Below are positions 47,161 through 51,634 of a stretch of 64,000 bases of DNA, piece after piece. Numbering within the stretch: the stretch's first letter is position 1; each line of letters starts with the position of its first letter. Both the position numbers and the translations under genes were made by a program. The notes under the pieces are model-generated. The model made no database searches. It was not told where the DNA came from and worked only from the letters and a program-made list of their open reading frames with translations. Source of the stretch: Methylopila sp. Yamaguchi (GTDB lineage Bacteria; Pseudomonadota; Alphaproteobacteria; Rhizobiales; Methylopilaceae); the NCBI RefSeq assembly GCF_002897035.1, contig NZ_BAUX01000003.1, forward strand, positions 62,001-126,000, in the 5' to 3' direction.

Positions 47161-47658
47161 TTAGAACGAGGTCGCGAGACGGGCGCCGGCGGGCTTGATG
47201 GTCCGGCGGCGCCGCTCCTTCGGCTCCTGGGGCTCGTCCTGCGCCGCTCGGCCCGCCATCTGGCGCAGCGCGCGGCGTTCGGACGAGCTGACGATGTGGG
47301 TGCTCTCGAGCGGCGCGTAGCTGCTCGGATCGCCGATGCGCCCGCCCGTGAACACGACCACGCGGTCCGCCAGGAACAGCACGTCGCCGCGCCGCAGGGT
47401 GGGATCCATGAGATGCCAGTCGGGGTTCGCGACCGGATCGATTGTGCGCGCCAACTGCTCCTGCGGGGTAAGCTGGGGCTTCCGGACGGGCGCTCGTTCG
47501 GCGCGCGGCGCAGGCGGCGGCGCCGCCCGCGGCTCACGGTACTCCTCGACCGGAGCCGGCGCTCGGCGCCCGAACAGGAAGTCGAGGAACCCCGCCTGCG
47601 CTGTGGGCGCGGCGACGCTCGCCACGACCACCGCCGTCGCCAAGGTGCGAAATTTCAT
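47161..47658 (-). CDS. Secreted protein of unknown function
   Basis: A 165-residue protein. A signal peptide (TLATAVVVASVAAPTAQA-G) is followed by FLDFLFGRRAPAPVEEYREP, a Pro/Arg-rich stretch and a compact region LARTIDPVANPDWHLMDPTLRRGDVLFLADRVVVFTGGRIGDPSSYAPLES. The tail is basic. Homologues occur in rhizobia without a name. No Cys, no catalytic motif. It is the last gene before the nrsF-sigF operon on the same strand, 132 bp away, so it could be read through from it. Confidence 0.7.
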   Translation of the reverse strand: MKFRTLATAVVVASVAAPTAQAGFLDFLFGRRAPAPVEEYREPRAAPPPAPRAERAPVRKPQLTPQEQLARTIDPVANPDWHLMDPTLRRGDVLFLADRVVVFTGGRIGDPSSYAPLESTHIVSSSERRALRQMAGRAAQDEPQEPKERRRRTIKPAGARLATSF

Positions 47659-47790: not shown

Positions 47791-48429
47791 TCACCAGCGC
47801 AACAGACGCGAGCCGGCGACGGCGCCCGCCGTCGCCACGATCGCGACCGCAAGCGTGTACCAAACCGCCACGAACAGCGGCGAGTCGTCCGGGCAATGAG
47901 CTGCGTAGAACGTCGCGCCGATCGCGCCGGCGAGCACGCCTGCGACCGCGCCGGCGAGCCGCGGCGACGCCGGCGCGCCGCGGCGGAGCGCGATCAGCAG
48001 CGCAGCCAGCGGGATGGCTGACAGGACGGGCACGTTGATCAGGCAGACCAGCCAGTTGTGGCCCACAAGCCGCGGCGCCCAAGTCGCCCCGGGCGTCGCC
48101 GACAACTCCGCCAATACGCCCGCTCCAAGCAGCGCGACGGCCGCGAGGAAGGCCAGCGCGCCGCCCCGCGGCGAGGCGCCCGGCCGCGCTAGCCGCAGCG
48201 CGAGCAGCGCGGCCGCGGCCGCAAACGCGCCGGTCACCGCGAACTTGAACGGGAACCGCACGGTTCCAAGGGCGTCGACGACGTCGGGGCGCGGTCCGAG
48301 CTTCACGGCGAAGACAAGCGCGGCGCCCACGACCGCGAGTGCGAGCGCGAGCGCGAAAGTTCGGCCGAGCCGCGCGGGCGGCGTGCCGGCGTCGGCGGCC
48401 ATGGCCGCGATCAGATCGCTCGTCCTCAT
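47791..48429 (-). CDS. nrsF: NrsF-family anti-sigma factor (DUF1109)
   Basis: A 212-residue membrane protein with six hydrophobic helices. The N-terminal cytoplasmic segment MRTSDLIAAMAADAG and the Cys residues in LVCLINVPVL and FYAAHCPDDSPLFVAVWY are typical of DUF1109, which includes Caulobacter NrsF, the membrane anti-sigma factor of SigF. Conserved Cys residues are needed for metal response in that system. Its start overlaps the sigma gene stop (ATGA). By analogy it holds SigF inactive until metal stress. Confidence 0.9.
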   Translation of the reverse strand: MRTSDLIAAMAADAGTPPARLGRTFALALALAVVGAALVFAVKLGPRPDVVDALGTVRFPFKFAVTGAFAAAAALLALRLARPGASPRGGALAFLAAVALLGAGVLAELSATPGATWAPRLVGHNWLVCLINVPVLSAIPLAALLIALRRGAPASPRLAGAVAGVLAGAIGATFYAAHCPDDSPLFVAVWYTLAVAIVATAGAVAGSRLLRW

Positions 48430-48974
48430 TCCCGGAAGCTCCTGTAGGCGACGGACAACGCGCTCAATCCTCTGTGCAGCGCGACCCTCACGGCGCCCTC
48501 GGTCATGCCTAACTTGGTCGCCGTGGCGCGGATGTCCGCGCCCTCCAGCGAGATCGACCGCACCACGTCATGCTGCCGGCCCTTCAGCACGGACAGCAAC
48601 CTGTCGGTCTCATGGGCGGACAGGCCGTCCTCCTCCTGGGGCGCGGCCAGCATCTCCTCGACGTCCTCGATCGGCACGGCGATCCGCCGCCCGCGACGCC
48701 GGAGCGCATCGGTCAGCTTGTTGCGCGCGATGGTCGCGACCCAGGGGCCGACCGGCTGGGCCGGATCCCACGTGCCGCGCTTGAGATGGATCGCGAGCAA
48801 CGCCTCCTGGACCACGTCCTCCACCTCTGCGTCGTCCACGCCGAAGCCGCCCCGACGTCGGACCACGCGACGCAGGAACACGGACAGCTCGTCGAGCAGC
48901 CGCCGGTAGGCGCGCGTGTCGCCCGCCTCAGCCGCCCGCATCCAGGTCGCCCAGTCCAGTTCACGCTCGTTCAC
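48426..48974 (-). CDS. sigF: ECF sigma factor SigF
   Basis: A 182-residue extracytoplasmic-function sigma factor. Region 2 spans GDTRAYRRLLDELSVFLRRVV ... VEDVVQEALLAIHLKRGTWD ... VGPWVATIARNKLTDALRRR and region 4 SVLKGRQHDVVRSISLEGADIRATATKLGMTEGAVRVALHRGLSAL. It begins at a GTG with GAGGA 7 nt upstream. Followed directly by nrsF and divergent from bufA, as at Caulobacter sigF loci. A promoter of the same type as that of bufA lies immediately upstream, so it probably activates itself. Confidence 0.92.
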   Translation of the reverse strand: MNERELDWATWMRAAEAGDTRAYRRLLDELSVFLRRVVRRRGGFGVDDAEVEDVVQEALLAIHLKRGTWDPAQPVGPWVATIARNKLTDALRRRGRRIAVPIEDVEEMLAAPQEEDGLSAHETDRLLSVLKGRQHDVVRSISLEGADIRATATKLGMTEGAVRVALHRGLSALSVAYRSFRE

Positions 48975-48995
48975 GAAGCATCCTCGACTTGGGCT

Positions 48996-49021
48996 TACGT
49001 GCGGCGCGCAGGAAGCGTTAC
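48996..49021 (-). promoter_or_regulatory. SigF-type autoregulatory promoter for sigF-nrsF
   Basis: On the minus strand GTAACG (-35, 49016-49021), 16 bp, CGTA (-10, 48996-48999), 22 bp before the GTG start. It matches the bufA promoter in element sequence and spacing. Confidence 0.75.
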
Positions 49022-49074
49022 GCGCGGGCGGCGGTCAAGCGCGAATAAATTTTCGGGGGAAGTTTGTGTGGCAT

Positions 49075-49100
49075 GTAACGAACGGCGGATCGCCGACGAA
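49075..49100 (+). promoter_or_regulatory. SigF-type promoter for the bufferin operon
   Basis: GTAACG (49075-49080), 16 bp, CGAA (49097-49100). Caulobacter SigF promoters are reported as GTAACC-N16-CGAA, so this is a near-exact match. The -10 lies 50 bp upstream of the bufA ATG. Confidence 0.8.
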
Positions 49101-49150
49101 GACTGGGTTGCGGGCCGCTTAGAGCCCGGTTCTACTGTAGGAGAACAGTC

Positions 49151-49435
49151 ATGAATCGTCGTGTCGCCGCCGTCGCCCTCGCGGGTTCGTTCGCCGCCGC
49201 CCTCGCCGCGGCCGCCTCGCCCGCCCTCGCGGAGGACAAGATGGCGGGCAAGGAGAAGTGCTACGGCGTGGCCTTGAAGGGCCAGAACGACTGCGCCGCC
49301 GGCGCAGGCACCACCTGCGCCGGCACCTCCAAGGTCGATTTTCAGGGCAACGCCTGGAAGGCCGTGCCGGCCGGCACCTGCGTCACCATGAAGACCGCCA
49401 AGGGCATGGGCTCGCTCTCGCCGATCAAGATGTGA
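49151..49435 (+). CDS. bufA: Bufferin precursor BufA1 (DUF2282), copper-buffering RiPP
   Basis: A 94-residue precursor with a signal peptide ([19 protein letters not shown], cut near 27) and a core with exactly four Cys: Cys37 ([14 protein letters not shown]), Cys48, Cys56 ([17 protein letters not shown]) and Cys77 (PAGTCVTM). This is the DUF2282/BufA1 pattern. Known bufferins have Cys converted to thiooxazole groups by the BufB-BufC enzymes, are exported and bind copper in the periplasm. GTAGGAGAACAGTC supplies the ribosome site. First gene of bufABC-doxX behind a SigF promoter. Confidence 0.93.
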
Positions 49436-49506
49436 CCGCCGCCGCCGGACGCGGGGCCTGTCCGCGGCGTCCGGCGGCGCGTCCTGCCCCACAGCGGAGC
49501 GACGCC

Positions 49507-50379
49507 ATGATCCTGACCACGCTGCCCGCCACGGCGGGTGTCGGCTTCAAGCCAGAGCATTTCGGCGACGTGCTCGCCGACGGCGGCTTTGGCGGATTCT
49601 TTGAGGTTCACGCCGAGAACTACATGGGCGCCGGCGGGCCTCCGCACGCCCAGCTGACGCGTCTTCGCCAGGATCACGCTCTCTCGATCCACGGCGTCGG
49701 CCTGTCGATCGGCGGCGCTGGGCCGCTCGACTGCGCCCATCTGGCGCGGCTGAGGTCCCTCTGCGACCGCTATGCGCCGGAAAGCTTCTCCGAGCATCTC
49801 GCCTGGTCGACCCACGACGGCGTGTTCCTGAACGACCTGCTGCCGCTGCCCTACACCGCCGAGACTCTCGCCCAGGTGATCGCCCATGTGGACGAAACCC
49901 AAAGCGCGCTGGGTCGGCGGATGCTGCTCGAGAATCCGGCGACCTATGTGCTCTTCGCCGAGAGCGACATTCCCGAGACGGAGTTCCTCGCCGAGGTGGC
50001 GCGCCGGACGGGCTGCGGGCTCCTGCTGGACGTCAACAACGTGCTGGTCTCGGCGACCAACCATGGGACCTCGCCGGAGCGATATCTCGACGCGTTCCCC
50101 CTCGCTCAGGTGGGCGAGATCCATCTCGCCGGTCATGACCTCGCCGAGGGCGACGGCGGCGCGCCGTTGCTGATCGACGCCCACGGCGCGCCTGTGGCCG
50201 ATCCGGTGTGGGCGCTTTACGCCCGCACGCTCGACCGCACAGGACCTCTCCCGACGCTGATCGAGCGCGACAACGACGTGCCGGCATGGCCTGAGCTCCG
50301 CGCTGAAGCCGGCGTCGCGCAGAGGCTCATCGACGGTGCGGCGGCCGGCGCATCCGTGTCCAAGCGGGTGGCGGCGTGA
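49507..50379 (+). CDS. bufB: BufB, multinuclear iron oxidase (MNIO, DUF692)
   Basis: A 290-residue TIM-barrel enzyme of the MNIO (DUF692) family that oxidatively modifies Cys residues of the bufferin core. Iron-ligand segments are in order: [71 protein letters not shown] and LIERDNDVP. The ATG at 49507 is preceded by GGAGCGACGCC. Its last bases overlap the bufC start (GTGA). Works as a heterodimer with BufC in characterised systems. Confidence 0.93.
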
Positions 50380-51158
50380 GCGCGGCCGCGCAGGCGCGCT
50401 TTGCGGCGGCGGCGCTGGACCCGGGGGCCGCGGTTCCGGCCGATCTCGCGCAAGCAGGCGGCCGCGCGCCGGAACGGCGCTTCGCGGTCTACCGCAACAA
50501 CGTGGCGGTTGGGCTCGCGGGCCCGCTCGCGGCGCGGTTTCCGGCGGTGCGCGGCATCGTCGGCGCGGACTTCTTCGCGGAGCTCGCCCGCGCGTTCGTC
50601 CGGGCGCATCCGCCGCGCTCCCCGCTGATGATGCTCTACGGCGACGATTTTCCCGCCTTCGTGGACACGGCGCCGGGGCTGGAGGAGCTGCCTTATCTCG
50701 GCGACGTCGCCCGGCTAGAGGCGGCCCGCACGCGCGCCTACCACGCGGCCGACGTCGCCCCTCTCGGGGCGGCCGCCTTCGCGGCGATTGGGCCGGAGGC
50801 GCTGGCGGAGGCGACGATCAGGCTCCATCCGTCCCTCGGCCTGGTGCGCTCGCGCCACCCGGTGGCGTCGATCTGGGCCATGAACGCCGGCGAGGCGGAA
50901 CTGGGGCCGATCGACGGCCTCCCGCCCGAGGACGCCATCGTCGGGCGCCCTGCGCTCGACGTCCACGTGCGCCGGCTGCCGCCCGGCGGCGCGGCGTTCC
51001 TGGCAGCGTTGCACGGAGGACGCCCGCTCGGGCGCGCCTGCGCCCTCGCCCGGCGCGTCGCGCCGGACTTCGACGTCGCCCTCAACCTGTCCGGCCTCAT
51101 CGCATCCGGCCTCGCCGCGGCGATCGCCCCATCCCCTTGCAAGGATCCCAAGCCATGA
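50376..51158 (+). CDS. bufC: BufC, precursor-recognition partner (DUF2063)
   Basis: A 260-residue protein with a DUF2063 (HvfC/BufC N-terminal) domain: [61 protein letters not shown], then [25 protein letters not shown] and a C-terminal domain [18 protein letters not shown]. The GTG start overlaps bufB by 4 bp and its TGA overlaps the doxX ATG, so translation is coupled. In known systems it binds the precursor and positions it for BufB. Confidence 0.92.
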
Positions 51159-51634
51159 CCGCCGCAGCGCCCATCGCCGGCCCCAGGCCGCGCGGAAGCC
51201 TCGTCGCCGCCGTCGAGCGCCTGATCGGGCTGTTCGAAGCGATCCCATACTCCGCGCTCGCGCTCGCCGCCCGCATCTTTCCGGCGGCGGTGTTCTGGCA
51301 GTCCGGTCAGACCAAGGTGCAGGGGTTCGGCCTCTCCGACAGCGCGGTCTACCTGTTCCAGGAAGAGTACCGGCTGCCGCTGATCGACCCGACCGTCGCC
51401 GCTTACGGCGCCGCCTTCGCCGAGCATTTTTTCCCCATTCTTCTGGTGATCGGCCTAGCCAGTCGCTTCGCGGCGCTCGCGCTGCTCGGCATGACGCTGG
51501 TGATCGAGATCTTCGTCTATCCCGACGCCTGGCCGACGCATGGGGTGTGGGCGGCCTGCTTCCTGCTGGTGATCGCGCGGGGGCCGGGATCGTTCTCCCT
51601 CGACCGTCTGATCGCCGGCGCGCGGCGGGGCTGA
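51155..51634 (+). CDS. DoxX family membrane protein
   Basis: A 159-residue inner-membrane protein with four hydrophobic helices: [25 protein letters not shown], the segment [45 protein letters not shown] and a final helix. DoxX genes close many bufABC operons, where they are thought to contribute to redox chemistry or export. The ATGA overlap with bufC shows it belongs to the operon. Exact role unproven. Confidence 0.88.

What the first reader, a model, noticed from the sequence alone, without database searches (positions are those of the whole stretch)
47791..51634. Complete bufferin locus with paired SigF-type promoters on both arms
The sigma factor, its membrane anti-sigma factor and a four-gene bufABC-doxX operon diverge from one 176-bp gap. 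In it I read GTAACG-N16-CGTA towards sigF and GTAACG-N16-CGAA towards bufA. Identical -35 elements and spacing on both strands argue that SigF controls itself and the copper-buffering RiPP. The precursor has four Cys (37, 48, 56, 77), as BufA1 peptides do. Bufferins were described recently in Caulobacter; this is a full copy in what seems a different order, so peptide and metal range may differ. The DoxX role is still open.
Basis: partly seen in the sequence, partly recalled or inferred. Interest (0 to 1): 0.8.

Follow-up and report, generated by a model that had tools for sequence, protein, structure and literature searches.

The report
Ordinary SigF-controlled copper-buffering peptide locus
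This is a complete, well-conserved copy of a known bacterial gene cluster that makes a copper-binding peptide under a stress-sensing sigma factor; the only new points are that the same switch also appears to drive oxidised-methionine repair genes here, and that the peptide genes have been lost twice in the genus while the switch stayed.

Summary
A sigF-nrsF pair and bufABC-doxX diverge from a 176-bp gap with one GTAACG-N16-CG(T/A)A box on each arm, and BufA has Cys 37, 48, 56 and 77. All six proteins fall in the expected families. The host belongs to Methylopilaceae (Hyphomicrobiales). The arrangement, the paired promoters and SigF control were published for Caulobacter in 2012, copper induction in 2021, and SigF/NrsF-linked Buf1 clusters were surveyed in 2025. 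Of 63 divergent relatives, 42 keep an exact box on both arms (control 0). It is a new member of a known kind; nothing suggests an altered peptide or metal range. (2) bufABC-doxX was lost at least twice in the genus while sigF-nrsF and the msrP box stayed. (3) In the genus the sigF and msr boxes read CGTA (38 of 39) but the bufA box CGAA (7 of 7). (4) A hairpin follows the bufA stop codon in most relatives, conserved in pairing but not in sequence; I found no report of it in the papers checked.

The parts
47791..48429 (-). nrsF, six-TM anti-sigma factor (DUF1109/NrsF), Cys129 and Cys179
   Evidence: Pfam PF06532 E 1.5e-60; only two Cys; same positions as OsrA C129/C179
48426..48974 (-). sigF, ECF16-type sigma factor
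   Evidence: NCBIfam NF009165 above cut-off, E 1.2e-69; Sigma70_r2 and r4_2
48996..49021 (-). SigF-type box towards sigF, GTAACG-N16-CGTA
   Evidence: a box with CGTA upstream of sigF in all 13 congeners
49075..49100 (+). SigF-type box towards bufA, GTAACG-N16-CGAA
   Evidence: exact box on this arm in 53 of 63 relatives
49151..49435 (+). bufA, Buf1 (DUF2282) precursor, 94 aa, four Cys (37, 48, 56, 77); residues 1-27 read as a Sec signal peptide
   Evidence: Pfam PF10048 E 3e-24; Cys count; signal peptide by eye
49440..49479 (+). hairpin starting 4 nt after the bufA stop, in the 71-nt bufA-bufB gap, no U-tract
   Evidence: own sequence alone z -1.4; conserved as a structure in relatives
49507..50379 (+). 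bufB, MNIO maturase
   Evidence: NCBIfam NF050167 MNIO_BufB above cut-off, E 2.1e-111; aligned with MbnB structures
50376..51158 (+). bufC, DUF2063 partner protein
   Evidence: Pfam PF09836 E 3.4e-25
51155..51634 (+). doxX, membrane protein of unknown role
   Evidence: Pfam PF07681 E 1e-17

Best explanation
A standard Buf1 bufferin locus with its ECF16 sigma switch. NrsF holds SigF at the inner membrane. Metal or oxidant acting on Cys129/Cys179 of NrsF releases SigF (inferred from Caulobacter and Bradyrhizobium homologues). SigF-RNA polymerase then transcribes sigF-nrsF and bufABC-doxX from the two divergent boxes and, in this genome, also msrP, msrQ and msrB from boxes at three other loci. 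BufB with BufC oxidises the two central Cys of BufA (48 and 56) to thiooxazoles, Cys37-Cys77 form a disulphide, and the Sec-exported peptide binds excess copper in the periplasm (chemistry inferred from characterised bufferins). The hairpin after bufA probably raises bufA mRNA above the maturase mRNAs by stabilising its 3' end or attenuating read-through (inferred). SigF is thus a periplasmic redox/metal stress switch whose usual outputs in this genus are itself and MsrP, with bufferin as an optional second output.
For: Families of all six proteins. Exact boxes, conserved on both arms across classes. Single copies of DUF2282, MNIO and NrsF in the genome, so SigF, precursor and maturase are unambiguous partners. 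Boxes about 25-35 nt upstream of msrP, msrQ and msrB in the same orientation, identified by NCBIfam; a box at msrP in 12 of 13 congeners, at msrQ in 9 and at msrB in 5 of 13. G001, which has an msrP relative but no NrsF, has no box. Experiments on homologues: SigF-dependent 5'-RACE and lacZ for CC3254 and sigF, and CC2748 (MsrP) in the regulon; copper induction and copper sensitivity of a sigF mutant; OsrA cysteines and MetSO reductases in Bradyrhizobium; HOCl induction in Brucella.
Against: No expression, mass-spectrometry or metal data exist for this organism. The box is short and not enriched genome-wide over its reversed control. G014 and G017 keep bufA without an exact N16 box. The msrB box is present in only 5 of 13 congeners and G008 lacks the msrP box, so targets beyond sigF and bufA vary. 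The own-sequence hairpin is only z -1.4 against shuffles; its support comes from the comparison. BufA scores under the cut-off of the only NCBIfam bufferin model it hits (BufA2), so Buf1 assignment rests on PF10048 and the Cys pattern.
Confidence: 0.87

Rival explanations
1. SigF is a dedicated bufferin/copper regulator that controls only itself and bufABC-doxX.
For: The two boxes and the divergent arrangement.
Against: Boxes at msrP, msrQ and msrB; four congeners keep sigF-nrsF and the sigF and msrP boxes without any DUF2282 or MNIO gene.
Confidence: 0.08
2. One or both boxes are chance matches and the operon is driven by other regulators.
For: The box is not enriched genome-wide over its reversed control.
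Against: Two boxes in one 176-bp gap, correctly oriented; 42 of 63 relatives with both and 0 control matches; promoter mapping in Caulobacter. No sigma-70-like promoter found in the region.
Confidence: 0.03
3. The post-bufA hairpin is just ordinary G+C-rich sequence without function.
For: The own sequence alone is not exceptional (z -1.4), and no U-tract follows.
Against: Gap mean z -2.34 against -0.09 inside bufB and -0.55 upstream of bufA; 63% against 19% of post-stop 70-mers with z < -1.5; stem of 12 or more in 42% of gaps against 3% of shuffles, with different arm sequences in different lineages.
Confidence: 0.2

Closest known systems
Caulobacter crescentus sigF-nrsF / CC3254-CC3257 (Buf1 bufferin)
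   Same: Same gene order, divergent arms, highly similar promoters on both arms, DUF2282-MNIO-DUF2063-DoxX, two NrsF Cys 50 residues apart, MsrP in the regulon (PMC3511200, PMC8224329)
   Different: Caulobacter has a second DUF2282-MNIO operon and msrP-msrQ as one cluster; here there is one bufferin operon, msrP and msrQ lie apart with a box each, and msrB also has a box
Bradyrhizobium EcfF-OsrA and Brucella BcrS-AbcS (ECF16)
   Same: ECF16 sigma with a DUF1109 anti-sigma factor, Cys129/Cys179, GTAAC...CG(t/a) box, MetSO reductases as targets
   Different: No bufferin genes turned up in the passages read on those regulons; inducers studied there are H2O2, singlet oxygen and HOCl
Methylopila capsulata DSM 6130 locus (L001)
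   Same: Same operon and both boxes; BufA 88% and SigF 88% identical
   Different: No material difference seen

Membership tests
Buf1 bufferin biosynthetic cluster | DUF2282 precursor with four conserved Cys and a Sec signal peptide | tested here: met
   PF10048 E 3e-24; Cys 37/48/56/77; signal peptide judged by eye only
Buf1 bufferin biosynthetic cluster | MNIO maturase gene | tested here: met
   NF050167 MNIO_BufB, 371.5 bits against cut-off 310
Buf1 bufferin biosynthetic cluster | DUF2063 partner and DoxX genes in the cluster | tested here: met
   PF09836 and PF07681 over their gathering scores
Buf1 bufferin biosynthetic cluster | Thiooxazoles on the central Cys and copper binding | not testable with these tools
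   Needs mass spectrometry and metal titration
ECF16 SigF-NrsF system | Sigma factor with regions 2 and 4 only, next to a DUF1109/NrsF gene | tested here: met
ECF16 SigF-NrsF system | Two conserved Cys in the anti-sigma factor | tested here: met
   Cys129 and Cys179, the only Cys
ECF16 SigF-NrsF system | GTAAC-N16/17-CGAA-type target promoters | tested here: met
   the sigF arm is CGTA, a variant also covered by the Bradyrhizobium motif
ECF16 SigF-NrsF system | MetSO reductase genes in the regulon | tested here: met
   Boxes at msrP, msrQ, msrB; expression not tested

The most novel reading that the evidence does not exclude
In Methylopila-type bacteria bufferin is an optional, at least twice-lost output of a SigF methionine-sulfoxide-repair regulon. 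It is set apart by its own promoter class (-10 CGAA against CGTA at sigF, msrP, msrQ and msrB) and by a conserved post-bufA hairpin that sets the precursor-to-maturase ratio across bufferin operons of Alphaproteobacteria.
Probability: 0.45. Interest if true: 0.42.

Novelty: new member of a known kind. Interest (0 to 1): 0.28.

Why it matters
It adds a clean one-copy example in a genus that also has natural bufferin-minus relatives keeping the same switch. That makes it possible to ask what SigF does without bufferin and how far copper buffering and methionine repair are one response. The hairpin is a testable candidate for how these operons make more precursor than enzyme.

Tried and rejected
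Genome-wide counting of the box as evidence by itself: rejected, matches do not exceed the reversed control. The remaining boxes of the own genome (L080, L083, L084, L086) showed no plausible downstream target; ccmC (L184, L200) has a box 90 nt upstream in only two close genomes, left open. The -10 letter difference as a general rule: rejected outside the genus. Over 63 loci the buf arm is 48 CGAA to 5 CGTA and the sig arm 28 to 23, but the sig-arm letter needs only 5 changes on the SigF tree, so it follows lineage. Intrinsic terminator between bufA and bufB: none found by the scan. Solved structures: none matches BufA. The search for a paper joining Methylopila and bufferin found none. Searches failed for wrong bufB coordinates and for a term that the tool does not take.

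Full report
Observation. The six genes, the 176-bp gap, the two boxes and the four Cys of BufA are exactly as described. bufB starts at 49507, and bufB/bufC and bufC/doxX overlap by four bases, so translational coupling is likely. The genome holds a single DUF2282, a single MNIO and a single NrsF gene, all here.

What it is. Pfam and NCBIfam place the proteins as NrsF, an ECF sigma factor, DUF2282, MNIO (BufB over its curated cut-off), DUF2063 and DoxX. BufB aligns with the solved MbnB structures, including several shared His, Asp and Glu positions; I did not map the metal ligands one by one. The genome falls in one GTDB genus with G007, whose contig of 995166 bases matches that of Methylopila capsulata DSM 6130, that is Methylopilaceae, Hyphomicrobiales.

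The promoters. Two exact boxes in one gap are far more than chance for the window, although the box is not enriched genome-wide. Conservation settles it: of 63 loci with divergent sigF and bufA from alpha-, beta- and gammaproteobacteria, 42 have an exact box on both arms, 11 on the buf arm only, 8 on the sig arm only and 2 on neither; the reversed pattern occurs in none. Some of the missing ones are spacing variants (L055, L069, and probably L007). These loci are related and not independent.

Already known. In Caulobacter the same divergent locus, highly similar promoters on both arms, SigF dependence of both, NrsF as negative regulator with C131/C181, and the MsrP gene CC2748 in the regulon were reported in 2012 (PMC3511200). 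Copper induction of the whole cluster and copper sensitivity of a sigF mutant followed (PMC8224329). The 2025 survey lists sigma factor and NrsF genes as parts of Buf1 clusters and four conserved Cys as the rule, the central two modified and the outer two in a disulphide (PMC12452194). ECF16 systems in Bradyrhizobium and Brucella share the Cys pair, the box and MetSO reductase targets.

The regulon in this genome. Ten exact GTAAC-N17-CGWA sites exist in the 4.42-Mb genome. Besides the two at this locus, three lie about 25-35 nt upstream of, and point at, msrP, msrQ and msrB, which are at three separate loci (families; MsrQ scores just under its curated cut-off). All five sites found in M. capsulata (G007) are these same five. 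Among 13 congeners the msrP box is exact in 12, the msrQ box in 9 and the msrB box in 5. Outside the genus, G002 has an msrP box and NrsF; G001 has an msrP relative, no NrsF and no box. These are predicted targets; no expression was measured.

An optional module. G006, G010, G011 and G013 have sigF-nrsF but no DUF2282 and no MNIO, and keep the sigF box and the msrP box. In G013 the sigF upstream region, including its box, runs straight into the sequence that follows doxX in the window (111 bp at 97% identity), so the block from just beyond the sigF box to just after the doxX stop is absent. A tree of MsrP plus MsrQ for 12 congeners puts the bufferin-minus genomes in two places; two changes are the minimum and well-supported branches force two. 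Because sigF-bufA adjacency is widespread, loss is the simpler direction (inference).

Promoter letters. In the genus the box reads CGTA at sigF (13 of 13 genomes), msrP (12 of 12), msrB (5 of 5) and msrQ (8 of 9), and CGAA at bufA (7 of 7 exact). Across all loci the sig-arm letter follows lineage with few changes, so this is a property of the genus, not a rule. Whether CGTA and CGAA differ in strength is not known here.

The post-bufA hairpin. The 71-nt bufA-bufB gap folds into a long stem starting 4 nt after the stop codon. Alone it is not exceptional (z -1.4). Over 53 alphaproteobacterial loci the gap averages z -2.34, against -0.09 for equal stretches inside bufB and -0.55 upstream of bufA. 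For the 70 nt after the stop codon, bufA averages -2.06 and long ORFs in the same loci -0.42. Of 52 gaps 90% have a stem of nine or more pairs, against 33% of shuffles, and 42% have twelve or more, against 3%. Arm sequences differ between lineages while pairing holds. I made no formal covariation test, and the loci are related. The 2025 survey text has no mention of stem-loop, hairpin or terminator; the original 2024 bufferin paper was not read, so I cannot say the hairpin is unreported.

Verdict.

Noticed in passing
L064, L067, L074; L038: bufA next to doxX without bufB or bufC nearby (L064, L067, L074), and bufA beside sigF-nrsF with none of bufB, bufC or doxX found within the fetched locus (L038).
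   Followed up: no
L057, L079: sigF-nrsF lies on the same strand downstream of doxX instead of divergent from bufA.
   Followed up: no
G009 (L096, L107, L109): Three NrsF genes in one genome, and the MNIO gene split into two frames; the assembly is only 88% complete.
   Followed up: no
47161-47658 (-): Small protein with a signal-peptide-like start and no Pfam or NCBIfam match, kept next to nrsF in G013 (L102).
   Followed up: partly
L184, L200: A GTAAC-N17-CGTA site 90 nt upstream of ccmC in the own genome and G013 only; target status uncertain.
   Followed up: partly
L108 (G017): A second, weakly scoring NrsF-like protein near a Met/His-rich exported protein.
   Followed up: no
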